This document shows, piece by piece, positions 26,851 through 53,104 of a DNA stretch of 64,000 nucleotides. Made by a program: the position numbers and the translations under genes. The stretch's first letter is position 1. Every line of letters begins with the position of its first letter. The notes beneath the pieces are model-generated. The model made no database searches and was not told the DNA's origin. It saw only the letters and a program-made list of their open reading frames with translations. This DNA is from Salminus brasiliensis (Eukaryota > Chordata > Actinopteri > Characiformes > Bryconidae): NCBI RefSeq assembly GCF_030463535.1, contig NC_132878.1, forward strand, positions 97,389,570 to 97,453,569, read 5' to 3'.

Positions 26851-26906
26851 CAGCAGCTCTGCTCTTTGTGCATTGTGATGGTAGTGGTAGATGATAGTGA
26901 GTGGTA

Positions 26907-26912
26907 AATAAA
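26907..26912 (+). other. poly(A) signal of scn1b-like copy 1
   Basis: AATAAA 57 bp after the stop codon, in GGTAAATAAAGAG. Confidence 0.75.
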
Positions 26913-28870: not shown

Positions 28871-28950
28871 TTCACAGGTTATCCACAGGTGCGAAGCGTC
28901 TAAAAAACATGTTTACAGGTAAACAAGTGTGAGTGTATTTTATCATATCA

Positions 28951-29103: not shown

Positions 29104-30340
29104 TCTCCACCAGTAGGGGGAGCCCACAAGCACAAAAGAGCAGTTCTTACATAACTCTGTTTAATTCATACCATTAATCATTAACCCTTTCACGCAGTGA
29201 TGCTTAGCACACACTGGATTACTCAGTAACTACAAGGACTTCACAGATGTGTGTGAAGCTCCGCCTCCAGTAGAAATCAGCTCACAAGTGGGCAGCGTTT
29301 GGCCAGGTTAAAGCCAGGTGTGAACAGGGCCTCAGTGCAGAGAACCTTTCTGTGGTTCATGGCCCTTCATGCCCACATGTCCTGCTTGGTTCCTTGCTCA
29401 GAGAACCCATTTGTAGCACCTTTGCGTGAGAACAGTCCAGATGTGCAGACAGCTGTGTGAAGAGGCTAAAAAACACAGGTGAGTTTTCCGTAAGGGATCC
29501 GACCACTGGGAGACCTATTTGTATAAATGTAAAAAATAAAGATGCCTCAAAAGGTTCTTTGGAGTGAAGCCACCTGCTCCCTCTACAGGTTTACTGTATC
29601 CCTGAGTGTTGCTGGAGTTGGGCCACAGAACCACTGCTGTAGGGAACAGGTCAAGCCAGGTCAGGTCAACTGAAGCGTCAAGGTAACTGATTACACAGCG
29701 TTTTGTCTAATGGTCTTGTAAAGTCTTGGGTTCACTCAGGACTTTTAAAGTCGTAGTAGACAATGAAGACTGGCTCTCTCAAACTTCCTGACTGAGATTT
29801 GCAAAAAACAAATGTCCATCCACTGCACGACTTCAACCTGCTGATGAACCGAACCCAGCACCCCCCGACACATGCTTGCCTGGGGTGAGGTCAAGGGTGG
29901 AAAGTATCAGTATCAGAGTCAGCATAGCCAGTACAGACTGCAGGGGGAGCTGTGGAGGTGGGGCACAGCACAAATTAGAGGCTACCCCATGTACGAGGCA
30001 GGCGTTGGCTTCTTATACAGATTTTTCTGCTCCACCTTAAACGGCGCAGCAGTTTGGTGGTTAACTAGCGCCATGTGGCTGCTTCATCATTTTAAAATGA
30101 ACGTCAAATTAATCTAAGAAACAGGGCGGGTCTGAAAAAAACCAGCATGCTTGATATAGCTAGGTCCCTCAGAACTCACTGGAGTTCTCCACCTCTCAGG
30201 AGAACCTGCATTGTGAGTTAGGAGAACATCAGACTCAGCTAGGTGGCGCTAACTCAACAAAAACGCTGTGCAACCGGGAACAAATAGGAGTTGTGTACTA
30301 ATTAAAGGCTAATGCCCGAGCCCATAACCAGTTAGGCACC
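29104..30340. other. intergenic between scn1b and pycard
   Basis: No gene found. About 30010-30065 resembles the arm of the palindrome at 11911-12045 (CCACCTTAAACGGCGCAGCA). The rest is unassigned. Confidence 0.5.
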
Positions 30341-30346
30341 TTTATT
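30341..30346 (-). other. poly(A) signal of pycard
   Basis: AATAAA on the minus strand, 55 bp after the pycard stop codon. Confidence 0.7.
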
Positions 30347-30400
30347 TTTTTTACCAGTGGAATTTTTACCAGCTCCAGTAGTGCCATGAGCTCAGTGGTC

Positions 30401-33400: not shown

Positions 33401-35025
33401 TGTTTGATTGGTGTATTACAAACAGCTAAACGTTTGGATTTACATAATAAACCAAAAAAAACAATAAATAAAGATATAAAGATATATATATAATATTATA
33501 TAAACATATTATATTATATAATATAAATATTTGTTGTTTCACTCACCTGCTCCAGCAGACTGTGAGTATCCGTTTGCTAGAAAAAAAGAAAACATAATTA
33601 GTTCTGTCAGATCCCAATGGCATCATCAGCACATAAATTACAAATGTACAAAATAATTACTAAAATAAGCTACTACATTTTAGAGAACAAACGCTAAGGT
33701 AGCACAAGCATTTATTCAGTACTATAAGTTTTATTTCAGTCCTCAGTGCTGATTACATTGGATAAATATTAACTCAGTACTTTCTGTATTAATTCAGTAT
33801 TTTTGTCTAGTATTCTTAGTGCTTAACTACTAATCAAATAAGTACTAATTCAGCACTTAGTGTTTTTTGTACACATTACTTCAGTACTTTAGGTTTCATT
33901 TCAGTACTCTCAATGCTGATTAAGTAACACATTACTTCAGTACTTTAGGTTTCATTTCAGTACTCTCAGCACAGATGCAGTAGTATAATTCAGTACTCTC
34001 AGTGATAGTTAATGCATTCAGTACTTTAGGTTTCATTTCAGTACTCTCAGCACAGATGCAGTAGTATAGTTCAGTACTCTCAGTGATAGTTAATGCATTC
34101 AGTACTTTAGGTTTCATTTCAGTACTCTCAGCACAAATTCAGTAGTTTAAGCATTAGTTTAGTATTCTCTGTGCTGATTAGGTTGGATAAATGTTAATTC
34201 AGTACTTTAGGTTTCATTTCAGTACTCTCAGCACAGATTCAGCAGTAAAGGTATCAACTCAGTACTCTCAGTGCTGATTAAGTAACACATTACTTTAGTA
34301 CTTTAGGTTTCATTTCAGTACTCTCAGCACAAATTCAGCAGTAAAGGTATCAACTCAGTACTCTCAGTGCTGATTAAGTAACACATTACTTCAGTACTTT
34401 AGGTTTCATTTCAGTACTCTCAGCACAAATTCAGCAGTAAAGGTATCAACTCAGTACTCTCAGTGCTGATTAAGTAACACATTACTTCAGTACTTTAGGT
34501 TTCATTTCAGTACTCTCAGCACAGATTCAGTACTACAGGTATCAGTTCAGTACTGACTAAGCTGAATAAGTAGTCTACCCTGCCAATTCAGCAGTTGGTG
34601 TTTAACAGTCCCTCGCGCTCGTGCTTTGTATGTGTCGCTGTGGTTCTGCAGCAGAAGCAGGGGTGGACACGTCTCCACCTAAAAGTGAAACTAAAACCCG
34701 TCTGCTCGGTTTCCTCGCTCGCGCTGCCCCGTCTCTCAGGTGAATAACCAGGCTCCTCACCTGCAGCCTCCTGTTCTAGATCCTCCGCTATCTGATTGGC
34801 ACCGATGGTCCTCAGCAGCTGCGCGGTGATCTCCAGCGCGCGCTTCTCCGTGTACGTTTCTATGAGAAGGCGCGCGACGTCTCCGCGGTCTTTCCCCTCC
34901 ACGGCGCCCCTCCGCACGCGCGGCTGCAGCCCGGAGTCGGTCAGCTTAGCGGTGAACTTCTTAAACTGCTCCGAGTCCAGATCCTCCTGAGCCTCGAGCA
35001 GGATGTCCCGCACGGACTTGGACAT
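30401..35025 (-). CDS. ASC inflammasome adaptor (PYD-CARD protein), complete (5 exons)
   Basis: Exons on the minus strand are 35025-34761, 33576-33547, 31722-31696, 30834-30802 and 30672-30401, together 627 nt or 208 aa (human ASC is 195). All introns are GT-AG and all interrupt after the first codon base. Residues 1-88 form a pyrin domain ([12 protein letters not shown]..., [27 protein letters not shown]). Residues 89-118 are a Gly/Ala/Ser linker split over three tiny exons. Residues 119-206 form a CARD ([42 protein letters not shown]). ASC polymerises through its PYD on activated sensors and recruits caspases into cytosolic specks. The neighbouring PYD-caspase at 42.1-52.5 kb, same strand, is its expected partner. 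Residue 13 is Gln where both other PYD exons in the window have Leu. Confidence 0.94.
31894..32042. mobile_element. 149-bp inverted-repeat element in pycard intron 2
   Basis: GATTGTTTATGGGCCAGTTT at the left is matched by AACTGGCCCATAAACAATC at the right; the middle is an ATATGCAT-rich palindrome. A foldback MITE is likely. Confidence 0.7.
32690..33000 (-). mobile_element. Tc1-like transposase fragment in pycard intron 2
   Basis: The minus strand encodes about 70 residues with [12 protein letters not shown] and [12 protein letters not shown], the catalytic-core motifs around the second Asp and the third acidic residue of Tc1 transposases. The rest of the transposase is missing, so this is a dead relic. 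Confidence 0.85.
33700..34560. repeat. minisatellite in pycard intron 1
   Basis: Complex repeat of TTCAGTACTTTAGGTTTCAT, TTCAGTACTCTCAGCACA and GTGCTGATTAAGTAACACAT modules, related to the array upstream of the gene. Unit B (39375-40050) has fewer modules. Confidence 0.88.
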
Positions 35026-35080
35026 GGTTCAGGGCAGCTCGCGCGCGTCCGCACTGGAGTCAGAAGACGAGAAGAAAGTT

Positions 35081-35105
35081 GGCGGGGCTTCTTCTCTTCC
35101 AGGAA
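35081..35105 (-). promoter_or_regulatory. GC box and GAS-like site upstream of pycard
   Basis: GGCGGGGC (35081-35088) and the palindromic TTCCAGGAA (35097-35105, matching TTCNNNGAA) lie 56-80 bp upstream of the pycard ATG. A STAT-type site would suit an immune gene, but motif matches this short are weak evidence. Confidence 0.4.
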
Positions 35106-35159
35106 GTTAAAAACATCAGCCCACAGCTTCTGCCCCTCCTCCCTGAAGCATACGTCTAC

Positions 35160-35470
35160 ATACACTGTCTGTCCAAAAGTTTGTGGACACCCCTTTTAAG
35201 GGATGCATTCAGCTGCTTTAGGATGCACCAGTTGCTGACACAGATGTGCAAATGCACACCCAGCTTGTCTCTGTAGAGAAGAAGAACTGCCAATAGAATA
35301 GGACCATCTGCAGGAGCAGATCAACACCATGCTGCCTAATAATGCCAGGCGTGGGCTAGAGGGGTATAAAGCCCCCCAGCGTTGAGGAGCTGTGGAGCAG
35401 TGGAAGAACTGTGTTCTCTGAAATGATGATGGTGGAGGAGCTCCATCCAGTACTTTTGGGATGAGTTAGG
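35160..35470 (+). mobile_element. Tc1-like MITE family C, left part
   Basis: Starts ACTGTCTGTCCAAAAGTTTG and includes GGCGTGGGCTAGAGGGGTAT and GAGGAGCTGTGGAGCAGTGG. The right end is replaced by the following minisatellite. Unit B carries the same truncated copy at about 40651-40960. Confidence 0.8.
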
Positions 35471-37620
35471 TATTTTTGGTACTGTCAGTACTGTTAGTGC
35501 TACGTTCAGTATTATCAGTGCTGATTCAGTAGTATAGGTATTTAGTACTGTCAGTACTGTCAGTGCTAATTCAGTAGTATAGGTATTTAGTACTGTCAGT
35601 ACTGTCAGTACTAATTCAGTAGTATAGGTATTTAGTACTGTCAGTACTGTCAGTGCTAATTCAGTAGTATAGGTATTTAGTACTGTCAGTACTGTCAGTG
35701 CTAATTCAGTAGTATAGGAATTTTTCAGTACTGTCAGTGCTAATTCAGTAGTATAGGTATTTTAGTACTGTTAGTGCTGCTAGTGCTAATTCAGTAGTAT
35801 AGGAATTTAGTACTGTTAGTGCTAATTTAGTAGTATAGGAATTTGTTCAGTACTGCTAGTGCTACTTCAAGTAGTATAGGTATTTTGGTACTGTCAGTAC
35901 TGCTAGTGCTACTTCAAATAGTATAGGTATTTTGGTACTGTCAGTACTGCTAGTGCTAATTCAGTAGTATAGGCATTTGTTCAGTATTATCAGTGCTAAT
36001 TCAGTAGTATAGGTATTTAGTACTGTCAGTGCTAATTTAGTAGTATAGGAATTTGTTCAGTACTCTTAGTGCTACTTCAGTAGTATAGGTATTTTTGGTA
36101 CTGTCAGTACTGTTAGTGCTACTTCAGTAGTATATGTACTTTAGTACTTTTAGTGCTTATTCAGGAGTATAGGTATTTGTTCAGTACTGTCAGTGCTAAT
36201 TTAGTAGTATAGGAATTTGTTCAGTACTGTTAGTGCTACTTCAGTAGTATAGGTATTTTGGTACTGTCAGTACTGCTAGTGCTAATTCAGTAGTATAGGC
36301 ATTTGTTCAGTATTATCAGTGCTACTTCAGTAGTATACATATGTTGGTACTGTCAGTACTGCTAGTGCTACTTCAAGTAGTATAGGTATTTTGGTACTGT
36401 CAGTACTGCTAGTGCTAATTCAGTAGTATAGGTATTTGTTCAGTATTATCAGTGCTAATTCAGTAGTATAGGTATTTAATACTGTCATTGCTAATTTAGT
36501 AGTATAGGAATTTGTTCAGTACTGTCAGTGCTACTTCAGTATTATAGGTATTTTTGGTACTGTTAGTGCTGTTAGTGCTAATTCAGTAGTATATGTATTT
36601 TTTTCAGTACTGTAAGTGCTACTTCTGTAGTATAGGTATTTTAGTACTGTTAGTGCTGTTAGTGCTAATTCAGTAGTATAGGTATTTTAGTACTGTTAGT
36701 GCTGTTAGTGCTAATACAGTAGTATAGGTATTTTTCAGTACTGTCAGTACTAATTCAGTAGTATAGGTATTTTAGTACTGTTAGTGCTGTTAGTGCTAAT
36801 ACAGTAGTATAGGTATTTTTCAGTACTGTCAGTACTAATTCAGTAGTATAGGTATTTTAGTACTGTTAGTGCTAATTCAGTAGTATAGGTATTTTTCAGT
36901 ACTGTCAGTACTAATTCAGTAGTATAGGTATTTTAGTACTGTTAGTACTGTTAGTGCTAATTTAGTAGTATAGGTATTTTCAGTACTGTTCGTGCTAATT
37001 CAGTAGTATAGGTATTTTAGTACTGTTAGTGCTGTTAGTGCTAATACAGTAGTATAGGTATTTTTCAGTACTGTCAGTACTAATTCAGTAGTATAGGTAT
37101 TTTAGTACTGTTAGTGCTAATTCAGTAGTATAGGTATTTTTCAGTACTGTCAGTACTAATTCAGTAGTATAGGTATTTTAGTACTGTTAGTGCTGTTAGT
37201 GCTAATTCAGTAGTATAGGTATTTTTCAGTACTGTCAGTACTAATTCAGTAGTATAGGTATTTTAGTACTGTTAGTGCTAATTCAGTAGTATAGGTATTT
37301 TTCAGTACTGTCAGTACTAATTCAGTAGTATAGGTATTTTAGTACTGTTAGTGCTGTTAGTGCTAATTCAGTAGTATAGGTATTTTTCAGTACTGTCAGT
37401 ACTAATTCAGTAGTATAGGTATTTTAGTAAAGTTAGTGCTGTTAGTGCTAATTCAGTAGTATAGGTATTTTTCAGTACTGTCAGTACTAATTCAGTAGTA
37501 TAGGTATTTTCTTAGAACTGTTTGTGTTTTTCAGTACTGTTTGTGCTAATTTAGTAGTATATGTATTTTTTTGGGACTGTTGATGTTTATTACATCAGTA
37601 CAATCTGTATTAATAGGTAT
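35470..37620. repeat. about 40-bp minisatellite, unit A
   Basis: Dozens of copies of TTCAGTACTGTCAGTGCTAA plus TTCAGTAGTATAGGTATTT. It begins exactly where family C is truncated. Unit B's equivalent (40965-41500) is about four times shorter. Confidence 0.92.
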
Positions 37621-37964
37621 TCATTCAGTAATTTAGGAGTTATTGAGATTTCAGTAAAGTTGGTTCATAATCAGTAGTATATGGAGCTAACTTGCTTTCA
37701 GCCCTGCCATTGCTATTTCAGTAATCTAGGCATTGATTCAGTACCAGATGTTATTTCAGCACTGTCAGTGCTAAATCCATAGTATAGGTATTCATTCACT
37801 ATTGTTAATTGTTATATTAAATTACAGTAGGCTCTTTCTTCAGTACGTTTGGTAGTAATTAATACTCCAGGTGTTTTCAGAAGTGAAATAATTTCAGTAA
37901 TGAAGGTCAATCAGAAAATTGAGAAATAATTCACTGTGGATACTGTGCATCATTATTAAAATTC

Positions 37965-37970
37965 TTTATT
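37965..37970 (-). other. poly(A) signal after orphan caspase exon 7
   Basis: AATAAA on the minus strand, identical in context to the caspase signal at 41938-41943. Confidence 0.65.
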
Positions 37971-38102
37971 AATCACATTTATGTCACACCAGGGAGGCAT
38001 GAGGCATCATATCAGCTGTAGTGTACTTCCCTTACATGGTATTATATGTCAGTTGAGCAGAATGTAATGTAAAAGTAGGCTGATGTTGATGTCGCTCTCC
38101 TC

Positions 38103-38201
38103 TCAGAGCCCTGGGAACAGGTAGAACAACTTTGTGAGAGAAATTCGATCCTTAGACACCATCTGTCTAAAGCGCCGGAAGTTCTCAAAACGTCTCATAA
38201 C
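38103..38201 (-). pseudogene. orphan copy of caspase exon 7
   Basis: 99 nt identical to caspase exon 7 (42076-42174), with its acceptor (TTACAG), stop codon and poly(A) signal. The rest of the caspase lies more than 4 kb upstream with its own exon 7 in between, so this copy would be used only by exon skipping or by transcripts from the orphan PYD exon. In that case it would be read in a different frame. Confidence 0.88.
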
Positions 38202-38329
38202 CTGTAACAGTAAAGGAGGAACACATTACACTCTGAGCTGAGCTTAGAGACTGAAACACTGTAGACCTGATTTATAGGGCAGTGTTGTCTCATATACATA
38301 AACAGAATCCTAATGTATAGTGCACATCT

Positions 38330-39089
38330 CATTATTATAAGAGCAGCATTCCATATACAGTATATATCTCATATATATGAGCAGCATTCCATATACAGTA
38401 TATATCTTATATATTTAATATATATGAGCAGCATCCCATATACAGTATATATCTCATATATATGAGCAGCATCCCATATACAGTATATATCTCATATATA
38501 TTTAATATATATGAGCAGCATCCCATATACAGTATATATCTTATATATTTAATATATATGAGCAGCATCCCATATACAGTATATATCTCATATATATGAG
38601 CAGCATCCCATATACAGTATATATCTCATATATATTTAATATATATGAGCAGCATCCCATATACAGTATATATCTTATATATTTAATATATATGAGCAGC
38701 ATCCCATATACAGTATATATCTTATATACAATATATGAGCAGCATCCCATATACATCATATATCTCATATATATGAGCAGCATCCCATATACAGTATATA
38801 TCTCATATATATTTAATATATATGAGCAGCATCCCATATACAGTATATATCTTATATATTTAATATATATGAGCAGCATCCCATATACAGTATATATCTC
38901 ATATATATGAGCAGCATCCCATATACAGTATATATCTTATATACAATATATGAGCAGCATCCCATATACAGTATATATCTCAGATATATGTAATATATAC
39001 AATATATGAGCAGCATCCCATATACAGTACATATCTCATATATATTTAATATATATGAACAGCATCCCATATACAGTATACTGTATATA

Positions 39090-39135
<46 letters not shown>
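38330..39135. repeat. AT-rich minisatellite, unit A
   Basis: Repeats of ATGAGCAGCATCCCATATAC plus AGTATATATCTCATATAT, with variable ATTTAATATAT inserts, ending in a pure (TA)n run at about 39096-39134. ORFs on both strands are artefacts of period. Confidence 0.93.
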
Positions 39136-39137
<2 letters not shown>

Positions 39138-39206
39138 TTGAAGTGGCCTAGTAAATGGTCTAAATACTTGTCCATGTCCAAGTTTATAATATAAATATTT
39201 GTTGTT

Positions 39207-40516
39207 TCACTCACCTGCTCCAGCAGACTGTGAGTATCCGTTTGCTAGAAAAAAAGAAAACATAATTAGTTCTGTCAGATCCCAATGGCATCATCAGCAC
39301 ATAAATTACAAATGTACAAAATAATTACTAAAATAAGCTACTACATTTTAGAGAACAAACGCTAAGGTAGCACAAGCATTTATTCAGTACTATAAGTTTT
39401 ATTTCAGTCCTCAGTGCTGATTACATTGGATAAATATTAACTCAGTACTTTCTGTATTAATTCAGTATTTTTGTCTAGTATTCTTAGTGCTTAACTACTA
39501 ATCAAATAAGTACTAATTCAGCACTTAGTGTTTTTTGTACACATTACTTCAGTACGTTAGGTTTCATTTCAGTACTCTCAATGCTGATTAAGTAACACAT
39601 TACTTCAGTACTTTAGGTTTCATTTCAGTACTCTCAGCACAGATGCAGTAGTATAATTCAGTACTCTCAGTAATAGTTAATGCATTCAGTACTTTAGGTT
39701 TCATTTCAGTACTCTCAGCACAAATTCAGTAGTTTAAGCATTAGTTTAGTATTCTCTGTGCTGATTAGGTTGGATAAATGTTAATTCAGTACTTTAGGTT
39801 TCATTACAGTACTCTCAGCACAAATTCAGCAGTAAAGGTATCAACTCAGTACTCTCAGTGCTGATTAAGTAACACATTACTTTAGTACTTTAGGTTTCAT
39901 TTCAGTACTCTCAGCACAAATTCAGCAGTAAAGGTATCAACTCAGTACTCTCAGTGCTGATTAAGTAACACATTACTTCAGTACTTTAGGTTTCATTTCA
40001 GTACTCTCAGCACAGATTCAGTACTACAGGTATCAGTTCAGTACTGACTAAGCTGAATAAGTAGTCTACCCTGCCAATTCAGCAGTTGGTGTTTAACAGT
40101 CCCTCGCGCTCGTGCTTTGTATGTGTCGCTGTGGTTCTGCAGCAGAAGCAGGGGTGGACACGTCTCCACCTAAAAGTGAAACTAAAACCCGTCTGCTCGG
40201 TTTCCTCGCTCGCGCTGCCCCGTCTCTCAGGTGAATAACCAGGCTCCTCACCTGCAGCCTCCTGTTCTAGATCCTCCGCTATCTGATTGGCACCGATGGT
40301 CCTCAGCAGCTGCGCGGTGATCTCCAGCGCGCGCTTCTCCGTGTACGTTTCAATTAGAAGGCGCGCGACGTCTCCGCGGTCTTTCCCCTCCACGGCGCCC
40401 CTCCGCACGCGCGGCTGCAGCCCGGAGTCGGTCAGCTTAGCGGTGAACTTCTTAAACTGCTCCGAGTCCAGATCCTCCAGAGCCTCGAGCAGGATGTCCC
40501 ACACGGACTTGGACAT
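39207..40516 (-). CDS. orphan pycard-type PYD exon pair; possible PYD-only protein or alternative first exons
   Basis: Exon 1 copy 40516-40252 and exon 2 copy 39244-39215 keep their splice sites, the ATG and the upstream GC box/TTCCAGGAA. Exon 1 differs from pycard exon 1 at 4 of 265 bases, giving Trp6 (Arg in the others) and Leu13. If exons 1 and 2 are joined and intron 2 is retained, the frame ends two codons later (GGT GAG TGA, stop at 39207-39209), a PYD-only product of about 100 aa. Splicing on to orphan caspase exon 7 would stop after five codons (about 103 aa). Splicing to pycard exon 3 would give a full ASC with a variant PYD. Mammalian PYD-only proteins (POP1-3) regulate inflammasomes; whether this one is expressed is unknown. 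Confidence 0.55.
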
Positions 40517-40571
40517 GGTTTAAGGCAGCTCGCGCGCGTCCGCACTGGAGTCAGAAGACGAGAAGAAAGTT

Positions 40572-40596
40572 GGCGGGGCTTCTTCTCTTCCAGGAA
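40572..40596 (-). promoter_or_regulatory. duplicated GC box and GAS-like site upstream of orphan PYD exon
   Basis: Same GGCGGGGC and TTCCAGGAA pair as at 35081-35105, 56-80 bp upstream of the orphan ATG, showing that the presumptive promoter was duplicated with the exon. Confidence 0.4.
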
Positions 40597-40650
40597 GTTA
40601 AAAACATCAGCCCACAGCTTCTGCCCCTCCTCCCTGAAGCATACGTCTAC

Positions 40651-41500
40651 ATACACTGTCTGTCCAAAAGTTTGTGGACACCCCTTTTAAGGGATGCATT
40701 CAGCTGCTTTAGGGTGCACCAATTGCTGACACAGATGTGCAAATGCACACACAGCTTGTCTCTGTAGAGAAGAAGAACTGCCAATAGAATAGGACCATCT
40801 GCAGGAGCAGATAAACACCATGCTGCCTAATAATGCCAGGCGTGGGCTAGAGGGGTATAAAGCCCCCCAGCATTGAGGAGCTGTGGAGCAGTGGAAGAAC
40901 TGTATTCTCTGGAATGATGGTGGTGGAGCTTCATCCAGTACTTTTGGGTTGAGTTGGGTATTTTTGGTACTGTCAGTACTGCTAGTGCTAATTCAGTAGT
41001 ATAGGTATTTAGTACTGTCAGTGCTAATTTAGTAGTATAGGAATTTGTTCAGTACTGTCAGTACTAATTCAGTAGTATAGGTATTTTAGTACTGTCAGTA
41101 CTAATTCAGTAGTATAGGTATTTTAGTACTGTTAGTGCTAATACAGTAGTATAGGTCTTTTTCAGTACTATCAGTACTAATTCAGTAGTATAGGTATTTT
41201 AGTACTGTCAGTACTAATTCAGTAGTATAGGTATTTTAGTACTGTTAGTGCTGTTAGTGCTAATTCAGTAGTATAGGTGTTTTTCAGTACTGTCAGTACT
41301 AATTCAGTAGTATAGGTATTTTAGTACTGTTAGTGCTGTTAGTGCTAATTCAGTAGTATAGGTGTTTTTCAGTACTGTCAGTACTAATTCAGTAGTATAG
41401 GTATTTTAGTACTGTTAGTGCTAATTCAGTAGTATAGGTATTTTTCAGTACTGTCAGTACTAATTCAATAGTATAGGTATTTTCTTAGAACTGTTTGTGT
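40651..41500. repeat. family C MITE fragment and contracted minisatellite, unit B
   Basis: The truncated MITE (40651-40960) is followed by about 13 copies of the TTCAGTACTGTCAGTACTAA-type repeat. Confidence 0.88.
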
Positions 41501-41937
41501 TTTTCAGTACTGCTCGTGCTAATATAGTAGTATATGTATTTTTTTGGGACTGTTGATGTTTATTACATCGGTACAATCAGTATTAATAGGTATTCATTCA
41601 GTAATTTAGGAGTTATTGAGATTTCAGTAAAGTTGGTTCATAATCAGTAGTATATGGAGCTAACTTGCTTTCAGCCCTGCCATTGCTATTTCAGTAATCT
41701 AGGCATTGATTCAGTACCAGATGTTATTTCAGCACTGTCAGTGCTAAATCCATAGTATAGGTATTCATTCACTATTGTTAATTGTTATATTAAATTACAG
41801 TAGGCTCTTTCTTCAGTACGTTTGGTAGTAATTAATACTCCAGGTGTTTTCAGAAGTGAAATAGTTTCAGTAATGAAGGTCAGTCAGAAAATTGAGAAAT
41901 AATTCACTGTGGATACTGTGCATCATTATTAAAATTC

Positions 41938-41943
41938 TTTATT
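41938..41943 (-). other. poly(A) signal of the PYD-caspase
   Basis: AATAAA on the minus strand, about 135 bp after the caspase stop codon. Confidence 0.7.
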
Positions 41944-42075
41944 AATCACATTTATGTCACACCAGGGAGGCATGAGGCATCATATCAGCTGTAGTGTACT
42001 TCCCTTACATGGTATTATATGTCAGTTGAGCAGAATGTAATGTAAAAGTAGGCTGATGTTGATGTCGCTCTCCTC

Positions 42076-45000
42076 TCAGAGCCCTGGGAACAGGTAGAAC
42101 AACTTTGTGAGAGAAATTCGATCCTTAGACACCATCTGTCTAAAGCGCCGGAAGTTCTCAAAACGTCTCATAACCTGTAACAGTAAAGGAGGAACACATT
42201 ACACTCAGAGCTGAGCTTAGAGACTGAAACACTGTAGACCTGATTTATAGGACAGTGTTGTCTCATATACATAAACAGAATACTAATGTATAGTGCACAT
42301 CTCATTATTATAAGAGCAGCATTCCATATACAGTATATATCTCATATATATGAGCAGCATCCCATATACAGTATATATCTTATATATTTAATATATATGA
42401 GCAGCATCCCATATACAGTATATATCTTATATATATGAGCAGCATCCCATATACAGTATATATCTTATATATTTAATATATATGAGCAGCATCCCATATA
42501 CAGTATATATCTCATATATATGAGCAGCATCCCATATACAGTATATATCTTATATATTTAATATATATGAGCAGCATCCCATATACAGTATATATCTTAT
42601 ATATATGAGCAGCATCCCATATACAGTATATATCTTATATATTTAATATATATGAGCAGCATCCCATATACAGTATATATCTCATATATATGAGCAGCAT
42701 CCCATATACAGTATATATCTTATATATTTAATATATATGAGCAGCATCCCATATACAGTATATATCTTATATACAATATATGAGCAGCATCCCATATACA
42801 TCATATATCTCATATATATGAGCAGCATCCCATATACAGTATATATCTCATATATATTTAATATATATGAGCAGCATTCCATATACAGTATATATCTTAT
42901 ATATTTAATATATATGAGCAGCATCCCATATACAGTATATATCTTATATATTTAATATATATGAGTAACATCCCATATACAGTATATATCTCATATATAT
43001 GAGCAGCATCCCATATACAGTATATATCTCATATATATTTAATATATATGAACAGCATCCCATATACAGTATACTGTATATATCTCATATATATATACAT
43101 TTGAAGTGGCCTAGTAAATGGTCTAAATACTTGTCCATGTCCAAGTTTAGCTTTTCCTTTTCAATAAATTTGCAGCATTTTTAAAATTTCAGTTTTAATT
43201 TTTTTATTTGAGCACAAAGTAGCCGCAACATGACAAAATGTGAAAAACGTGAAAGGGTCTGAAGACTGCCCGAATGCAATGTGTGTGAACTGTCTCCCCT
43301 ATACAGAATGTGTCTCATAGACATGTATGATTAGAATCGCATGAGTATGAAGTGCTGCTGGACTTGCCTGTCGGAACAGCTCCTCGATGTGGTCCTTATG
43401 CGCATTAGCGTTGAACACCTCCACCAGGAATCCAATGAAGTATGCTCCGTTTTCTTCGTTCCTGAAAGATACGGTGTCTGTGGAAAACAACAGTCTTATT
43501 TAATTTTAATAAAAATTTGAACAAACAAAAAGTTTCTTCACCGACCTGAAGAACAACCTTCTCGGCATCAGTTTTAAAATTCTAGGCGTAAAAAAAAATA
43601 AAAAAATAAAAATATAGAGTCTGGAGACCAGACTTGCTTAGGCAGCTGCGTCACTCAGGAACCCGGGATCCCCTAGCCTAGCGGATCTGGAAGTTAAAAA
43701 TGGGGGCTTCTGTACAAGCGGCGGGGGGGGGGGGGCTGTTCTTTAGTAACAGAAGTATGTAATAACACTGACGGCCGGTTGGCGGCCCACAGGCTGTAGT
43801 ATCCTAATAACGGACAGTCAGGTGGTCAGGTTGCAGTGGGATGAGGGTAAACCAATGGTCACCACGAGGTCCTACTCACCGGGGGTGCAGGAGAACAGGG
43901 AGACGAAATCCTTCTCTTTATGTTCCCACACACCATCAATCTCCATGTCGTCTGATTCGCTGTCAGAGACCCACACACGCCCATGCCTGTCTACACATAT
44001 AGAATGGAGAACGTGACTGACTCCCACTCTCTGTCACCAGAGCTGAAAACACCCACCCCTTCTCCCAGACCGAGCCTGTCCCACACCTCCTTTATTAAGC
44101 TTACAGATATACACTGAGGAGGCGGAGCTACAGTCTCTCATTAGGGTGAATAATAATTAATAACACTCTAAATGTAGGTATTGTGATATACACTGAGGAG
44201 GCGGAGCTACAGTCTCTCATTAGGGTGAATATTAATAACGCTCTAAATGTAGGTATTGTGATATACACTGAGGAGGCGGAGCTACAGTCTCTCATTAGGG
44301 TGAATATTAATAACGCTCTAAATGTAGGTATTGTGATATACACTGAGGAGGCGGAGCTACAGTCTCTCATTAGGGTGAATATTAATAACGCTCTAAATGT
44401 AGGTATTGTGATATACACTGAGGAGGCGGAGCTACAGTCTCTCATTAGGGTGAATATTAATAACGCTCTAAATGTAGGTATTGTGGTATACACTGAGGAG
44501 GCGGAGCTACAGTCTCTGGTTAGGGTGAATATTAATAATGCTCTAAATGTAGGTATTGTAATATACACTGAGGAGGCGGAGCTACAGTCTCTGGTTAGGG
44601 TGAATATTAATAATGCTCTAAATGTAGGTATTGTAATATACACTGAGGAGGCGGAGCTACAGTCTCTGGTTAGGGTGAATATTAATAATGCTCTAAATGT
44701 AGGTATTGTGGTATACACTGAGGAGGCGGAGCTACAGTCTCTGGTTAGGGTGAATATTAATAATGCTCTAAATGTAGGTATTGTAATATACACTGAGGAG
44801 GCGGAGCTACAGTCTCTGGTTAGGGTGAATATTAATAATGCTCTAAATGTAGGTATTGTAATATACACTGAGGAGGCGGAGCTACAGTCTCTGGTTAGGG
44901 TGAATATTAATAATGCTCTAAATGTAGGTATTGTAATATACACTGAGGAGGCGGAGCTACAGTCTCTGGTTAGGGTGAATATTAATAATGCTCTAAATGT

Positions 45001-48000
45001 AGGTATTGTGGTATACACTGAGGAGGCGGAGCTACAGTCTCTTATTAGGGTGAATATTAATAACGCTCTAAATGTAGGTATTGTGATATACACTGAGGAG
45101 GCGGAGCTACAGTCTCTCATTAGGGTGAATATTAATAACGCTCTAAATGTAGGTATTGTGATATACACTGAGGAGGAGGAGCTACAGTCTCTCATTAGGG
45201 TGAATATTAATAATGCTCTAAATGTAGGTATTGTGGTATACACTGAGGAGGCGGAGCTACAGTCTCTGGTTAGGGTGAATATTAATAATGCTCTAAATGT
45301 AGGTATTGTAATATACACTGAGGAGGCGGAGCTACAGTCTCTGGTTAGGGTGAATATTAATAATGCTCTAAATGTAGGTATTGTGATATACACTGAGGAG
45401 GAGGAGCTACAGTCTCTCATTAGGGTGAATAATAATTAATAACGCTCTAAATGTAGGTATTGTGATATACACTGAGGAGGAGGAGCTACAGTCTCTCATT
45501 AGGGTGAATATTAATAACGCTCTAAATGTAGGTATTGTAATATACACTGAGGAGGCGGAGCTACAGTCTCTCATTAGGGTGAATATTAATAACGCTCTAA
45601 ATGTAGGTATTGTAATATACACTGAGGAGGCGGAGCTACAGTCTCTGGTTAGGGTGAATATTAATAATGCTCTAAATGTAGGTATTGTGATATACACTGA
45701 GGAGGCGGAGCTACAGTCTCTCATTAGGGTGAATAATAATTAATAACGCTCTAAATGTAGGTATTGTGGTATACACTGAGGAGGCGGAGCTACAGTCTCT
45801 CATTAGGGTGAATATTAATAATGCTCTAAATGTAGGTATTGTGGTATACGCTGAGATGTGATCAGTTTAACAGATAGTTGTTTAAAATAACTGTAGAAAA
45901 TGAACAGAAATAAATATGAAATATTAGTATTACCTCCTCTGCAGGCCTGAATCAGAATAACCTTGGGTTTGTCGCGCAGAGCCGGGCAGTTCGCTGTGTT
46001 CAGGTGTGTGTAGATATTGTCCACAGGAAGGAAATCCTTGTCATTGTCTGGTCCATGATGGACCCCCAAAATTTTGTCTTTCTTTCCATGAGACATAATG
46101 ACCACGAAGGTGCTGTCTGATTCTGCATGCTCGCTACGTCCAGCAAAGCTCCTAATCGCCTCGTCCATTTCCTGAAAAAACAACCAGTCTCAGTTTATTA
46201 CTGGTGGAGTTGTGGGCGGTAGGCGTGTTCTGTGCTAACTATGCTAACTCTTGTGAAGACAACTGAATGTAATGGACACTATTTTTAATGTCATTAAAAA
46301 GCTTTATCTGCAGTTAGCTAATTAGCTAATTAGCTTCTTTACAAATGAACGGTCAGTGATATATAAAGAAGAGGTTCTAGCAGTTATTGGATTGCAGGCT
46401 TGGTGGACCTATACTTCCTTAGGACACTTGGAGGTTCTGCATAGGGCACATTTCATCCACCCTTCCTTTCCCAACTCTTCCTGAGTTTCCAGCTGGTCCT
46501 CAATTTTTTTGAGGTCTCAGAATCCACAGCGTTAGCTTTCAACATTGGTGGGCTTCCTCCCCTTTTCATTTTATTGGTTAAGATCCTCTTTCTTCCAGTT
46601 TCGATTCCTCTTCTCTGTTCTTCCTCCATCAGTGCTTCCTTCTCTAGAGTAACAGTGAGGGTTTCTGACTGCCCGACCTTCCTGATCCTACCAGTGGTTT
46701 ACCATGGCCCTGCTTTTGTAAATAGCCACATAGGTAAAGGACAGAACACCAGACCTACAGATAACCCTGAAGTACCTGGTCCATCTGGAGCAATGGACAA
46801 TGCAGTAGGTAGGCTGGAGGAGAGGAGGTAGTCCCCAAAGGGGAAAGAGGAGGCAGTTGCCAGGTGAGCAGAGAAAGCCGTCGCCAGGTGAGGAGGGAAA
46901 CCATCCCCAGGTGAGTTGGGGGAGAGTAAGGCTGGAAAGCGGGAAAGCTTCAGGCAGTGGTGGATCATTGGTTAGAGCTCCGGGCTGTTGATGACAGGGC
47001 TGTGGGTTTGAGACCTAGGCTCGGCAAGATGTCACTGTTGGGCCCTTGAGCAAGATTCTTTACCCTCTCTCTGCTCCCCGGGTTACCGTCTTCACAATGT
47101 CATATAGGGTCGTCATCTTGAGACTCGTCTTCATCCAGGCATCACTACCAGTGTTCGCCATATTCCTACATGGGCTGTAGAGACTACAATGCAGCAGCTG
47201 AGGTTTATGGCTATAGCGGGTCAATAGCTGAGCCACTTTGACAAGGGCCAAATTGTCGGACGACAGATACCATTACAAGAACTTTGCATATCGGACGATA
47301 ACAGATACCGATTCGATTCCACTGTTTAATTAATAACCTTAAATTTACTACATTTAGTAAACTCACTTAATCAATACTTTACTAACTTAAACTATAACAA
47401 ATGAATTCAGATATTAATGAACATAATTTCTGTTTATTGGTCACTAAAATCAATAACTGTGCTGGACCTCGACACAGTGCTGTCCGGACTCAAATCTCAA
47501 AATCTGTGAGACTAAAGAGGAGCGAGCAGCCCCTCCCTTCTCGGTTCTCCGTATATGGAAGACAAGCAACAGGTGGCGATAGGCAGAGTCCTGCTGTTCG
47601 TCATGATCTGTGTATGATGTCTGTAGGTTACTCTGATCCTGGGTTATGAAGCCTAGAAAACCGAGAATCTGGTACCGTGAATGGATCAAACGTTTGGATC
47701 AGACTAATTATCCAATATTCAACCAGCAAATTTTGTTAGTATCGGGCCGATATTCGATCCTAGTATCGGATTGGTGCATCCCTAGTGGGTACATACAGAT
47801 AGAGGTCTGAGCAAGGACAGACTACCAGCTGGCAACAGGGTGTTGGGTGATAACTGGTCAGACATGAAGACCTGAGCCGTTCTGACAAGGGACACACTGA
47901 TATGTCCAGACGTCTTGATCTTGCTGCTTGTAGGCAGATTCAAGCAAGTTGTGGTGGGTAACTACCAACAGTGGGTCGAGAAGGGACAAATCACAGGGTG

Positions 48001-51000
48001 CTGGGCTACTGCAGAAGAACTCTTAACAAAAAGATGATGGTTACTGGTGGAAAAACCTCACATCACACAGTGCAGCACCCTCCTGCTACATAGCTGCAGA
48101 TCTGTTAGAGTGCCCATGCTAACCCCTGTCCACCGTCAAAAGTGCCTACAGTGGCACACCCAAGTGTTCGGACTGGACCTTAAGGCAAAGAAAGAAGGTG
48201 GCCTGGTCTGATGAGGACTCTTTTCTTTTAGGTCACTTGGTTGGGCAGGTAAGCATTCACCATTTACCTGCGGGACAGGTCGTCTCGCAACTGACAGGAG
48301 TTCAAAGATCTGCTGGAAAGGCTTTAGAGGTTTTGTAGAATGAGCTGTTTTGGTGGCACTCCTCTTGCACCCAGTGGTGGACCAGTGGGTAAAGCACTGG
48401 TTTGATGTTTGTAGATGTTACATATTTCCATCAAACTTTCGGACCTTTTCCAATTTGTCTGCCCCCTACGCTGGTGGGTCGGTGGACTTCACAGACGTTC
48501 ACCAGTGATCAAGATATATATCTAATAGCCGATGTGTTGGATGTGGGAGAAATGGTCAGGCATGAAGACCTGATGCCAACTTGAGATGTCCAGGTGTCCG
48601 GGTCAGAATATCTTCAAAACGTCGAGGCTTGTGGGGGGCTTCTTGTCAGACGTGGTGGGTAACTACCCACAGTGGACCGAGGAGGGACAAATCAAAAAAC
48701 GGTGACGGGGTGTTGGGTGCCCGAGGCTCATCAATGTATGAGGAAAACAAAGGCTATCCCATCTGGGCTAAACTGATAGACAGCGTCCCAAGTCAGGAAA
48801 AACGACAAGAGCCAAACATTGTTGATGTTCTAGATAAACGACTGGGTCAGAACATCTCCAAAACATCAGGCAGGTCTTGTGGGGTATTCCCAATGTGCAG
48901 TGGCCAGTATCTACCTACCGGCGACAGGGTCATGGACGCCCAAGGCTCACTGATGCTCATGGAGGCCCCGCCCACCTCACAACATACAGAATTTAAATGA
49001 TCGCTGCTCACGTTAGCCTTGGTGCCAGATACTACAGGACTACAGGACACCTTGTGGAGTCCATGACTCGAATGGTCAGAGCTGTTGTTTATGTCACGGC
49101 TGAGTGGTGTAAGTCACTGGTGTCCAGTTTCCAGCCCTGACAACCACCAGGTGGCATCAGAGTAAACGCTGTTATGGTCATGTGACTCCTATCTTATGCC
49201 TGATTGGTGGAAGTTGTTAAACATCTTAGCATTAGTCTCCATGTTGTTGACTCACCCGGCCAGAGAGGTTGGTGTGCTTTACTACATCATAGCCCAGACC
49301 TCTCAGCAGTGTCTCCATGTTCTCCTCGTCTATCTGAGCTCCATTCCTTCTCAAATTAGCGTTGTCAAACTCCACGTTGTTGATGAGCAGAGCCAAGCAC
49401 TTCCTTGTACCCTTATCTAGAACATGGTAAATCTGAGGAAATATATACATACATATACATATATATATTAGTTCATTGTCCTGTTTCTGACACCCCATGT
49501 TGTCCTTCAGTGGGTGGACTTTAATACATGCTTCAAAATAAGGGGGCTTTGGAGTGGTTCCACCAAGGAACCTTTTTTATTTTTTGGAGTTTAAAGAACC
49601 TCCGCATAAGAAAGAACTTTACACCCCAAATAAAAACTAATTAACCCCTTAAAACAGCTTATTTTAGCAATTTTTTAACCCCCTTTGCACAAATAACTGA
49701 ATGAGATGGTGAGTTTGCTGTGAAGCGCTCGGTTCTAGATAAGCTCCCCCAGTCAGAGCTGGAGTTCTACAGTGGAGGTTCTAGATAACATCCCCCAGTC
49801 AGAGCTGGAGTTCTACAGTGGAGGTGAAGGGAAGCAGACGTCTGAAGCTCTAATAATAAAAGCTCCTCACAGAAAGTTCTTCACCTAATGGTGATGAAGA
49901 CGCTGCCTGATGCCTGAGACACGGTTCTACCAGAGTTCTGAGAAGAGTTCGGCTCTAGAACCTGCTTTTAAAATCAGATCATTAAAATGGTGGAGGGATA
50001 CATGCTGCAGGGTGTAGTGCAGCTACAGAAAGTAGTCCCTAAAGAGAACTGGATTAGTTCAGATTCTCTATTCACTATTTTACCTTCATCATCATCATCA
50101 TCGTCATTCCATATAACCCACTGGTGGGTTTGGATAGGAGATAAATTATGGGCTGTATCTGTGTTGTTGTAGTCATGGCGACCGACGCCTGCTTCCATTC
50201 ACCTCCACTGTAAAGTCAGATTCCTACCTCCTTTCCTTTTTCTCTGAGGACGTTCTCCTTGAACTGGGGGGTGCAGTGAATGAGAGCAGAGTTGGGGTTG
50301 GGTGGAAGGGTTGGAGAATCCCCTGCAGAAGGAATTTCAGGGTCTGTGGTAACGTCAGATTGAAGTGGAGGTTCAGGTTGAGGCGCTTGGCGAACGAAAT
50401 CTGAGAACAACGACATTAGGACAGAGATTAGCTTGGTAACCAGACTGCTAAATTTCTTGATGAATGGACCAATAGAAATGATCCCAAATAACTTGGAATC
50501 CATTTTTTACACTGATGTTTTTCCTCATTATGTAAAGCTGGAATTTTGTTGATACCAGGATGTTTGACATCACAGCAACACTCGGTTTGTATACAGTCTA
50601 CAGAAACCTGCATTACAACTGCATTAACCGTGCCTTAATAGGGTGTAAATATGTATTAGGGTGTAATAGGGTGTATTAAGAATGCCATATAGGGTGTTAG
50701 GGTGTCTAAACATGGTGTAAATAGAGCGTTAGGGTGTATTTATGGTGCCTAAATATGGTGTAGTTAGGGTGTATTTAGGATGCCAAAATTAATAAGGTTA
50801 ATAAGGTTAGTGATGTTTATATATAGTATATAATGTTAATAAGGTTAATGATGTTTATATATAGTATATAACGTTAATGAGGGTAATGATGTTTATATAT
50901 AGTATATAACGTTAATTAGGGTAATGATGTTTATATATAGTATATAAAGTTAATTAGGGTAATGATGTTTATTTATAGAATATAACGTTAATAAGGTTCA

Positions 51001-52466
51001 TTATGTTTATATATAGTATGTAACGTTAATAAGGTTAGTGATGTTTATATATAGTATATAATGTTAATAAGGTTAGTGATGTTTATATATAGTATATAAC
51101 GTTAATTAGGGTAATGATGTTTATATATAGTATATAACGTTAATAAGGTTAGTGATGTTTATATATCGTATATAACGTTAATTAGGGTAGTGATGTTTAT
51201 ATATAGTTTATAACGTTAATAAGGTTAGTGATGTTTATATATAGTATATAACGTTAATTAGGGTAGTGATGTTTATATATAGTATATAATGTTAATAAGG
51301 TTAGTGATGTTTATATATAGTATATAACGTTAATAAGTTTAGTGATGTTTATATATAGTATATAACGTTAATAAGGTTAATGATGTTTATATATAGTATA
51401 TAAAGTTAACTAGGGTAATGATGCTTATATATAGTATATAAAGTTAATTAGGGTAATGATGTTTATTTATAGAATATAACGTTAATTAGGGTAATGATGT
51501 TTATATATAGTATATAACGTTAATAAGGTTCATTATGTTTATATATAGTATATAACGTTAATAAGGTTCATTATGTTTATATATAGTTAATGATGTATAT
51601 TAATCAGGTATATTGTTTATATATTATATATAGTTAATGATGTTTATATATAGTATATAAAGTTAATTAGGGTAATGATGTTTATATATAGTATATAACG
51701 TTAATAAGGTTCATTATGTTTATATATAGTATATAACGTTAATAAGGTTCATTATGTTTATATATAGTTAATGATGTATATTAATCAGGTATATTGTTTA
51801 TATATTATATATAGTTAATGATGTTTATATATAGTATATAAAGTTAATTAGGGTAATGATGTTTATTTATAGTATATAAAGTTAATAAGGTTCATTATGT
51901 TTATATATAGTATATACAGTTAACTAGGGTAATGATGTTTATATATAGTATATAAAGTTAATAAGGTTCATTATGTTTATATATAGTATATACAGTTAAC
52001 TAGGGTAATGATGTTTATATATAGTATATAAAGTTAATAAGGTTCATTATGTTTATATATAGTATATACAGTTAACTAGGGTAATGATGTTTATATATAG
52101 TATATAAAGTTAATAAGGTTCATTATGTTTATATATAGTATATAACGTTAATAAAGGTGATCAATAAAGACCCCCCCCCCTCTCCTCCCCCTCCTCCTCA
52201 CCTGCAGCCTCCTGTTCTAGATCCTCCGCTATCTGATTGGCACCGATGGTCCTCAGCAGCTGCGCGGTGATCTCCAGCGCGCGCTTCTCCGTGTACGTTT
52301 CTATGAGAAGGCGCGCGACGTCTCCGCGGTCCTTCCCCTCCACGGCGCCCCTCCGCACGCGCGGCTGCAGCCCGGAGTCGGTCAGCTTAGCGGTGAACTT
52401 CTTAAACTGCTCCGAGTCCAGATCCTCCAGAGCCTCGAGCAGGATGTCCCGCACGGACTTGGACAT
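42076..52466 (-). CDS. PYD-containing inflammatory caspase (caspase-1/Caspa type), complete (7 exons)
   Basis: Minus-strand exons are 52466-52202, 50400-50228, 49432-49256, 46171-45934, 43990-43880, 43477-43368 and 42174-42076, together 1173 nt or 390 aa. All phases join; intron 6 has a GC donor (CAG|GCAAGT). Residues 1-88 form a pyrin domain, 89-146 a Pro-rich linker ending QFKENVLREKGKE, then the peptidase C14 domain: LALLINNVEFDN, catalytic His233 in MSHG, catalytic Cys282 in QACRG, an acidic p20/p10 linker (SDSESDDMEID), and the small subunit ending FYLFPGL. ASC recruits such caspases through PYD-PYD contacts; they then self-process and cleave IL-1 family cytokines and gasdermins. Zebrafish Caspa and Caspb both have this domain order; I cannot tell orthologue from paralogue. 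Introns hold a 75-bp array, a MITE, Tc1 relics and a SINE. Confidence 0.93.
42308..43100. repeat. AT-rich minisatellite, unit B (caspase intron 6)
   Basis: Same GAGCAGCATCCCATATAC plus AGTATATATC repeat as 38330-39135, without the long terminal (TA)n run. Confidence 0.92.
44100..45850. repeat. 75-bp minisatellite in caspase intron 4
   Basis: About 23 copies of a 75-bp unit (GATATACACTGAGGAGGCGG, AGCTACAGTCTCTCATTAGG, GTGAATATTAATAACGCTCT and so on). As 75 is divisible by three, ORFs of about 418 aa (+) and 430 aa (-) run through it; these are period artefacts. Two unit types (CTCTCATT with AACGC, CTCTGGTT with AATGC) occur in blocks. Confidence 0.97.
46172..46951. other. caspase intron 3, left part, unassigned
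   Basis: No mobile element or exon is recognised. It has ordinary composition with short ORFs. Confidence 0.45.
46952..47090 (+). mobile_element. tRNA-derived SINE in caspase intron 3
   Basis: TGGTTAGAGCTC resembles an A box and GGGTTTGAGACCT a B box of a tRNA-type RNA polymerase III promoter, followed by CTCGGCAAG and GTTGGGCCCTTGAGCAAG typical of fish tRNA-SINE bodies. No intact tRNA gene is present. Confidence 0.75.
47245..47786. mobile_element. hAT-like MITE relic
   Basis: The right end GGATTGGTGCATCCCTA and internal ATCGGACGATA and ATCGGGCCGATATTCGAT resemble hAT MITEs with TAGGGATGCACCxATCC termini. The left terminus is not recognisable. Confidence 0.5.
47790..48330 (+). mobile_element. 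Tc1-like transposase relic (middle part)
   Basis: AGAGTGCCCATGCTAACCCC, TGTCCACCGTCAAAAGTGCC and AAGGTGGCCTGGTCTGATGA encode, in broken frame, the VPMLTPVHR and KVAWSDE region of fish Tc1 transposases. Confidence 0.7.
48590..49090 (+). mobile_element. Tc1-like transposon relic (5' coding part, partly duplicated)
   Basis: GTTGATGTTCTAGATAAACG, CTGGGTCAGAACATCTCC and ACCGGCGACAGGGTCATGG match the N-terminal Tc1 region, and a more diverged copy precedes it at 48590-48720. Related to 3390-3610. Confidence 0.65.
49816..50210 (-). mobile_element. MITE family A, inverted copy in caspase intron 2
   Basis: 395 bp with CAGTGGAGGTGAAGGG at the left and CCATTCACCTCCACTG at the right, and TA on both sides (49814-49815 and 50211-50212). 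The tail repeats lie at about 49728-49813. It ends only 17 bp from the donor of exon 2 (exon low end 50228). Confidence 0.88.
50640..52155. repeat. about 38-bp minisatellite in caspase intron 1
   Basis: About 37 copies of TTAATAAGGTTAGTGATG plus TTTATATATAGTATATAACG, with block-wise variants (AGGTTCATTATG, TTAACTAGGG). It ends about 50 bp before the PYD exon donor, followed by a C-rich run. Confidence 0.94.
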
Positions 52467-52533
52467 GGTTCAGGGCAGCGCGAGCGCGAGATCGAGAACT
52501 ACGGGAAATGAGGAAACACACCCGCTTACAGCC

Positions 52534-52541
52534 TGACGTCA
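52534..52541 (-). promoter_or_regulatory. CRE palindrome upstream of the PYD-caspase
   Basis: TGACGTCA, 68 bp upstream of the caspase ATG. A full consensus CRE/ATF site this close to a start is a reasonable promoter element, but it is motif evidence only. Confidence 0.45.
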
Positions 52542-53104
52542 CTGCTGCTGCTGGGTAGGTGTACAGGCACTGCAGTGCGCATGCGCACAACACACCTGTG
52601 TAGGAAGTGTGTAAGCCTGCATTACCACGTGCTTCTGCAACTGTCTGAGGCAGGTTCTAGAGCCGAACTCTTCTCAGAACTCTGGTAGAACCGTGTCTCA
52701 GGCATCAGGCAGCGTCTTCATCACCATTAGGTGAAGAACTTTCTGTGAGGAGCTTTTATTATTAGAGCTTCAGACGTCTGCTGCCCTTCACCTCCACCGT
52801 GCCTGGGTGGATGGTGTTGTGGTGGTTCAGCTGCTGGAGCTGCTTTACTGTAGATCCCTCCTGTTGACTAGTGGCTGAAGCACAGCAGGTATCAGCACTA
52901 ACAGCACAGCGCCCCCTGTCTGTCTGCACATCATTTAACATAAATAATAAGCCAGGAAGACCCCAGCTCTCTTTACACCACTGTGACCCAGTCCCAGCAT
53001 AATCTGCACTAAAGCAAACTGAACTCTCTCCAGCACTAACCCTGATCATAATCAGACCACAGCTTTACATGTTAATAATAATAATAAAATATTAATACTG
53101 ACCC

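What the first reader, a model, noticed from the sequence alone, without database searches (positions are those of the whole stretch)
34761..52466. PYD exons of ASC and its partner caspase are almost identical, and only the exon is
Caspase exon 1 (52202-52466) and pycard exon 1 (34761-35025) differ at 2 of 265 bases by direct comparison (one silent, one Leu13 to Gln). Similarity ends about 8 bp into the intron and about 13 bp upstream of the ATG. Adaptor and effector PYDs must bind each other, so exon-limited conversion would keep the interface matched as it evolves.
Basis: partly seen in the sequence, partly recalled or inferred. Interest (0 to 1): 0.85.

Follow-up and report, generated by a model that had tools for sequence, protein, structure and literature searches.

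The report
Shared binding exon in inflammasome partners
In this fish-like genome, two immune genes whose products are expected to plug into each other, the adaptor ASC and an inflammatory caspase, carry almost the same copy of the plug exon although the rest of the two genes is unrelated, most likely because the exon is copied between neighbouring genes by gene conversion.

Summary
Pycard exon 1 (34761-35025) and caspase exon 1 (52202-52466) differ at 2 of 265 bases; similarity stops 8 bp into the intron and 13-22 bp above the ATG, and flanks are at chance, 22-27%. The genome search listed five copies: three with pycard flanks (34761, 40252, 68964), two with caspase flanks (52202, 86381); 68964 and 86381 lie beyond the window in a second unit of a tandem block duplication. 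No site separates the types; two of six variable sites need parallel change if types never exchanged after the duplication (simulated P about 0.001 or less). Cross-type dS is 0-0.047; caspase 1 and an older neighbouring caspase differ at dS 0.44-1.72 in four other exons. Best explanation: ectopic, probably repeated, gene conversion confined to the stretch where homology remains. A caspase catalytic exon shows the same signature between two caspases (96.75% over 277 bp), so exon restriction needs no adaptor-effector interface. Interface matching is untested. No other fish could be compared. Conversion of single domains, pyrin domains included, is known; between ASC and its effector I found no report in nine searches.

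The parts
34761..35025 (-). PYD exon 1 of pycard A (88 codons + 1 base, Gln13)
   Evidence: Pfam PYRIN
52202..52466 (-). PYD exon 1 of caspase 1 (Leu13), 99.2% identical to pycard A exon 1
40252..40516 (-). Extra pycard-type PYD exon 1 in unit 1, pycard flanks and donor; no CARD exon of its own listed
34753..35047 (-). Whole homogenised tract on the pycard side (295 bp: 8 bp intron, exon, 22 bp 5'UTR)
52194..52488 (-). Whole homogenised tract on the caspase side (295 bp)
30410..30655 (-). CARD match of pycard A; its exon joins in phase to PYD exon 1 (splice inferred)
50225..50431 (-). Caspase 1 linker exon (approximate ends)
49256..49432 (-). Caspase 1 p20 exon a (codons compared)
45932..46171 (-). 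Caspase 1 p20 exon b (SHG and QACRG motifs; codons compared), second homogenised exon
45929..46205 (-). Second exon-limited tract: 96.75% identical to the third caspase (window-frame 93040-93316, outside the window); about 34 bp of it is upstream intron
43878..43988 (-). Caspase 1 p10 exon a (codons compared)
43368..43475 (-). Caspase 1 p10 exon b (codons compared)
21944..52650 (.). Unit 1 of a tandem block duplication; unit 2 is window-frame 52650-86829 and runs out of the window
52644..52797 (.). Dispersed repeat at the unit 1/unit 2 junction (related copies at 21839-22088 and, outside the window, 86858-87337)

Best explanation
The PYD exon is exchanged between tandem pycard (ASC) and PYD-caspase genes by ectopic gene conversion. 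Introns and promoters of the two genes have no detectable homology left, so conversion can act only on the exon, where selection on the protein keeps homology; the tract (about 295 bp) ends where homology ends. A unit holding one pycard and one caspase was duplicated in tandem, probably by unequal recombination between dispersed repeats, and exchange went on afterwards, leaving five mosaic exon copies with no type-specific site. Shown: exon identity, unrelated flanks, near-zero cross-type dS, block duplication, absence of type-fixed sites, a second exon-limited tract in a caspase catalytic exon. Inferred: DNA-mediated conversion and continued exchange; its direction is unresolved. Plausible consequence, not shown: adaptor and caspase keep matched PYD surfaces, while a neighbouring caspase that escaped may bind ASC less well.
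For: 99.2% exon identity with chance-level flanks. Cross-type dS over six pairs 0, 0.015, 0.015, 0.031, 0.031, 0.047, against dS 0.99 (linker), 0.86 (p20a), 1.72 (p10a), 0.44 (p10b) and 0.65 (PYD) between caspase 1 and the third caspase. Type-fixed differences 0; the 6 variable sites need 8 steps when types are kept apart, 2 sites homoplastic; frequency of 2 or more homoplastic sites 0, 0.0013, 0.0013 in 1,500 simulations each with CpG rate x5, x10, x20. Mean cross-type difference 16/6 = 2.7 sites, less than between pycard copies (4, 4, 4), though the two caspase copies differ at only 2. The tree with the PYDs of caspase 1 and the third caspase held together is rejected (AU p 0.0003). Same-strand genes with first exons 17.4 kb apart. 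A second exon-limited tract at p20b includes about 34 bp of intron.
Against: Only six variable sites; one of the two homoplastic sites is a CpG (codon 6 CGG/TGG). The simulation's tree shape, branch proportions and total of 8 expected changes were my choice. Alleles already present when the block duplicated could mimic later exchange. The AU test was run after the tree had been seen. No other species, reads or expression data were available, so recurrence over long time is inferred. High GC3 of the exon gives no support, since the third caspase PYD has it too.
Confidence: 0.82

Rival explanations
1. One single exon replacement, at or shortly before the block duplication, and no exchange since; the mosaic sites are recurrent mutation or old alleles.
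For: Cross-type distances (2-4 of 265) are close to the age of the block duplication (0.23-1.21% substitutions in seven non-PYD stretches). One homoplastic site is a hypermutable CpG.
Against: Two homoplastic sites among six are unlikely by mutation alone (about 0.001 or less); of the three pairs among the sites at codons 6, 45 and 55, two hold all four combinations (read).
Confidence: 0.13
2. Selection to keep ASC and caspase PYD surfaces identical is the cause: converted alleles are favoured because mismatched pairs signal poorly. (This can hold together with the best explanation.)
For: PYD-PYD contact is how inflammasome parts assemble (PMC9978379, passages); one paper states that zebrafish ASC interacts with caspy and not with caspy2 (PMC6076302, passages). 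Here one neighbouring caspase carries a different PYD.
Against: A caspase catalytic exon is homogenised in the same way between two caspases and has no such pairing need. Exon restriction follows from loss of intron homology. A review says that ASC is needed to recruit caspy2 as well (PMC9978379, passages). No test of selection was possible.
Confidence: 0.27
3. Conversion by a spliced or reverse-transcribed RNA copy, which would limit the tract to the exon.
For: The PYD tract is nearly exact to the exon.
Against: Eight intron bases are shared at the PYD exon (though they include the splice donor), and about 34 upstream intron bases at the p20b exon.
Confidence: 0.04
4. Assembly artefact: the caspase PYD exon is a misplaced copy, or unit 2 is the other haplotype laid in tandem.
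For: Units differ by only about 0.7% in substitutions (99 in about 13.6 kb, seven stretches); no reads were available.
Against: Two caspase copies carry the same exon-flank joins with different exon variants; the join is in phase with the caspase linker exon; block junctions sit in a repeat as unequal exchange predicts, and the only N run in the 144 kb lies outside the blocks. Within unit 1 alone the exon pair stands.
Confidence: 0.04
5. Purifying selection alone keeps an old exon identical.
For: The protein is conserved between copies, 3 variable residues of 88.
Against: Silent sites are also nearly identical (dS 0-0.047), whereas the third caspase PYD stands at dS 0.65-0.70 and 45-47% protein identity under the same fold constraint.
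Confidence: 0.01

Closest known systems
Mammalian PYHIN pyrin domains (PMC3458909, passages read)
   Same: The authors infer gene conversion or domain shuffling that kept pyrin-domain sequences alike within a species while the HIN domains differ; the same domain type as here.
   Different: All members are PYHIN sensors of one family; here the exon is shared between an adaptor and a protease that are expected to bind each other.
CEACAM paired receptors (PMC2832619, passages read)
   Same: In most pairs shown, highest similarity is limited to the N domain exon, barely entering the flanking introns; exceptions are one opossum and one dog pair.
   Different: The paired receptors share an outside ligand; whole genes are paralogues.
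SIGLEC11/SIGLEC16 (PMC5701461, abstract and passages read)
   Same: Repeated conversion in a region with the binding-domain exon between neighbours about 9 kb apart, in every primate examined.
   Different: Tract about 2 kb in the human lineage with several exons and upstream sequence.
Zebrafish NLR-B30.2 family (PMC4852459, passages read)
   Same: A single-domain exon homogenised across gene groups by conversion while another exon diverges (between groups 1, 2a and 3a median dS about 0.06 for B30.2, about 1.5-1.8 for NACHT).
   Different: Sensor family of hundreds of genes; the exon is for recognition, not for adaptor-effector docking.
Round goby ASC and caspase-1 expansion (PMC6988351, passages read)
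   Same: 20 ASC-type and 18 caspase-1 genes, PYD and CARD caspases in one genome; the authors call recurrent re-acquisition of PYD a valid scenario.
   Different: No conversion of an exon between ASC and caspase is described in the passages that I read.
Zebrafish caspy, caspy2 and ASC (PMC6076302, PMC2779465, PMC9978379, passages read)
   Same: Caspases with an N-terminal PYD in place of CARD; caspy is activated through ASC.
   Different: No caspy or caspy2 sequence could be compared here, and the sources disagree on ASC and caspy2.

Membership tests
ASC / PYCARD adaptor | PYD followed by CARD in one open reading frame | tested here: met
   Exons joined in phase give PYRIN 60.3 bits and CARD 47.1 bits; best solved match of the CARD is the ASC CARD of entry 5gpq (that 5gpq and 5gpp are zebrafish ASC is recalled, the tool does not print the species). 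The splice is inferred, no RNA.
PYD inflammatory caspase (caspy type) | PYD exon spliced in phase to a caspase-1-like peptidase with catalytic His and Cys motifs | tested here: met
   PYRIN 62.5 and Peptidase_C14 166.4 bits for exons joined by me; best solved match caspase-1; SHG and QACRG present (motif roles recalled). C-terminal end after p10 exon b not modelled; the splices are inferred, no RNA.
PYD inflammatory caspase (caspy type) | Binds ASC through the PYD | not testable with these tools
   Needs a binding assay; reported for zebrafish caspy (PMC6076302, passages).
Gene conversion between paralogous exons | Local silent-site identity far above that of neighbouring sequence | tested here: met
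Gene conversion between paralogous exons | Mosaic sites that contradict the gene tree | tested here: met
   0 type-fixed sites of 265, 2 of 6 variable sites homoplastic; few sites.
Concerted evolution across species | Within-species similarity greater than between orthologues in several species | not testable with these tools
   The collections hold no other fish genome. One hint: the ASC PYD of 5gpp (zebrafish by recall) is 58% identical to the third caspase PYD and 41% to this genome's own ASC PYD, but the AU test does not reject the orthologue grouping (p 0.106).

The most novel reading that the evidence does not exclude
In fish with tandem pycard and PYD-caspase genes, adaptor and effector docking domains evolve as one unit: conversion repeatedly overwrites the PYD exon, so ASC and its partner caspase change together within each species, and a caspase that falls out of the exchange (here the third caspase) is thereby loosened from ASC and free for another role.
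Probability: 0.27. Interest if true: 0.82.

Novelty: new variant of a known kind. Interest (0 to 1): 0.62.

Why it matters
How two proteins that must bind each other keep matching while pathogens drive them to change is an open question. Here the match is maintained, or at least reset, at the DNA level: the binding exon is nearly the same sequence in both genes. The locus gives a natural test, because one neighbouring caspase carries a diverged PYD. If the pattern recurs in other fish, ASC-effector pairing might be read from exon identity, and trees built from whole ASC or caspase proteins would be misleading.

Tried and rejected
GC-biased conversion signature: PYD exon GC3 is high (0.81-0.82), but the third caspase PYD, not part of the exchange, is higher (0.89), so it says nothing. 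Direction of conversion: the PYD tree groups the 5gpp ASC PYD with the third caspase (93/89, below the star level), but AU tests reject neither alternative (p 0.106 and 0.103); direction left open. Recent gain of a PYD by a caspase without one: unlikely, since the third caspase has the same order of PYD, linker, p20 and p10 exons, but not formally excluded. Another PYD exon as donor: the PYRIN search listed 35 matches, a lower bound; I read translations of 26; besides the five copies and the third caspase, none of the other 20 looked by eye like this PYD; nine matches of 35.7-49.1 bits, above the cut-off, were not fetched. Other fish: none in the collections. Whole-genome searches for further copies of the p20b exon and for PYDs like that of 5gpp did not complete. 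GENECONV was not run; a shuffle test of identical runs and a simulation stand in for it. Papers: nine searches showed no report of pycard-caspase exon conversion: 3 papers; 4; 10; 3; 89, 20 listed; 33, 15 listed; 66, 15 listed; 83, 12 listed; 5. I opened eight papers and saw passages only (for PMC5701461 the passages include most of the abstract). Most subscription papers are not in that library.

Changes made on checking: reading PMC3458909 added a closer precedent, and PMC9978379 a statement against caspy2 being free of ASC; I lowered the interface rival and the novel case from 0.30 to 0.27 and interest from 0.64 to 0.62 for these. The intron part of the p20b tract was recounted from about 36 to about 34 bp.
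Full report
Observation. The two exons differ at 2 of 265 bases: a silent change at codon 45, and codon 13, Gln in pycard 34761 and Leu in the caspase. The genes run on the minus strand. Identity continues for 8 bases of intron and for 13 bases of 5'UTR (22 with two mismatches); beyond, flanks are at 22-27%. A BLASTN of the two gene regions finds no other match below E 0.05.

Setting. The window lies at 97.39-97.45 Mb of a 99-Mb contig of a 1.07-Gb genome. The search listed five copies of the exon, a lower bound. In window-frame coordinates these are 34761, 40252, 52202, 68964 and 86381; the last two lie outside the window. Flanks sort them into a pycard type (34761, 40252, 68964) and a caspase type (52202, 86381). 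They lie in a tandem block duplication: unit 1 about 21944-52650 (31 kb), unit 2 about 52650-86829 (34 kb). The junctions coincide with copies of a dispersed repeat, as expected for unequal recombination. Substitutions between units are 0.23-1.21% in seven stretches, 99 in about 13.6 kb. Each unit has one pycard with a CARD exon and one PYD caspase with p20 and p10 exons. The exon at 40252 is an extra first exon for which no CARD exon was listed. A third caspase lies beyond unit 2 (PYD start at window-frame 100349), with the same exon order but a PYD 46.5% identical in protein to that of caspase 1.

Gene identity. Joined exon translations match PYRIN plus CARD, and PYRIN plus Peptidase_C14. 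The CARD is closest to the ASC CARD of 5gpq (zebrafish by recall) and the peptidase to caspase-1. Splices are inferred from phase and splice signals; there is no RNA.

Silent sites. Over the six cross-type pairs dS of the PYD exon is 0, 0.015, 0.015, 0.031, 0.031 and 0.047. Between caspase 1 and the third caspase dS is 0.99 (linker), 0.86 (p20a), 1.72 (p10a), 0.44 (p10b) and 0.65 (PYD). Purifying selection on protein cannot explain the PYD match across types.

Mosaic. Six sites vary among the five copies. None separates pycard from caspase copies. If types had not exchanged since before the block duplication, the six sites would need eight steps and two sites (codons 6 and 55) would be homoplastic. 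In 1,500 simulations for each of three CpG rates, two or more homoplastic sites arose with frequency 0, 0.0013 and 0.0013. Limits: few sites, one is a CpG, tree shape and rates were mine, and alleles already present at duplication could add to it. Cross-type differences average 2.7 sites, below the 4 between any two pycard copies, above the 2 between the two caspase copies.

A control inside the locus. The caspase p20b exon, with the catalytic motifs, is 96.75% identical over 277 bp between caspase 1 and the third caspase, dS 0.071, with flanks at 24-25% and about 34 bp of upstream intron in the tract. So exon-limited conversion occurs here in an exon with no adaptor-effector pairing. It tells against reading exon restriction itself as adaptive and points to a simple cause: only exons are still alike enough to recombine.

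Interface matching. It remains possible. One paper says that zebrafish ASC interacts with caspy and not with caspy2 (PMC6076302, passages); a review says that ASC is needed to recruit both, and also describes an ASC-independent route for caspy2 (PMC9978379, passages). The prediction for this locus, that the two caspases sharing the exon bind ASC and the third binds it less, is untested. The 5gpp ASC PYD is 58% identical to the third caspase PYD and 41% to this genome's own ASC PYD, which hints at earlier exchange or at fast joint change of the pycard-caspase pair; AU tests do not settle it.

Known relatives of the pattern. PYHIN pyrin domains are inferred to stay alike within species by conversion or shuffling (PMC3458909). 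CEACAM paired receptors show similarity mostly limited to the N exon (PMC2832619). SIGLEC11/16 show repeated conversion at the binding exon (PMC5701461). Zebrafish NLR genes show conversion of a single-domain exon (PMC4852459). The round goby paper raises re-acquisition of PYD by caspase 1 (PMC6988351). In nine searches (listings partly capped) I found no report of conversion between ASC and its effector. I therefore call it a new variant of a known kind.

Noticed in passing
45929-46205 (and window-frame 93040-93316, outside the window): Caspase p20b exon nearly identical between two otherwise diverged caspases; a second exon-limited tract.
   Followed up: yes
40252-40516: A second pycard-type PYD exon 1 about 5.2 kb upstream of the first, with intact donor and frame; could be an alternative first exon for the same CARD exon.
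   Followed up: partly
34988 (codon 13 of the 34761 exon): Gln13 only in this copy; the other four have Leu. By the alignment it faces Leu12 of the ASC PYD in 1ucp, so it may weaken this PYD.
   Followed up: no
21839-22088, 52644-52797 and window-frame 86858-87337: Copies of one dispersed repeat at the three junctions of the tandem block, as unequal recombination would leave.
   Followed up: partly
50637 to about 52.1 kb, and 44006-45884: Minisatellite arrays (38-bp and 75-bp units) in the caspase introns; the 75-bp array is much longer in unit 2.
   Followed up: no
window-frame -4999 to 0 (in L011): A 5-kb run of N just before the window, gap or withheld stretch.
   Followed up: no
G000 contigs C15, C20, C21, C9 and C1 near 98 Mb: Further clusters of PYD exons, NLR-like by eye (not annotated), among 35 PYRIN matches listed genome-wide.
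   Followed up: partly
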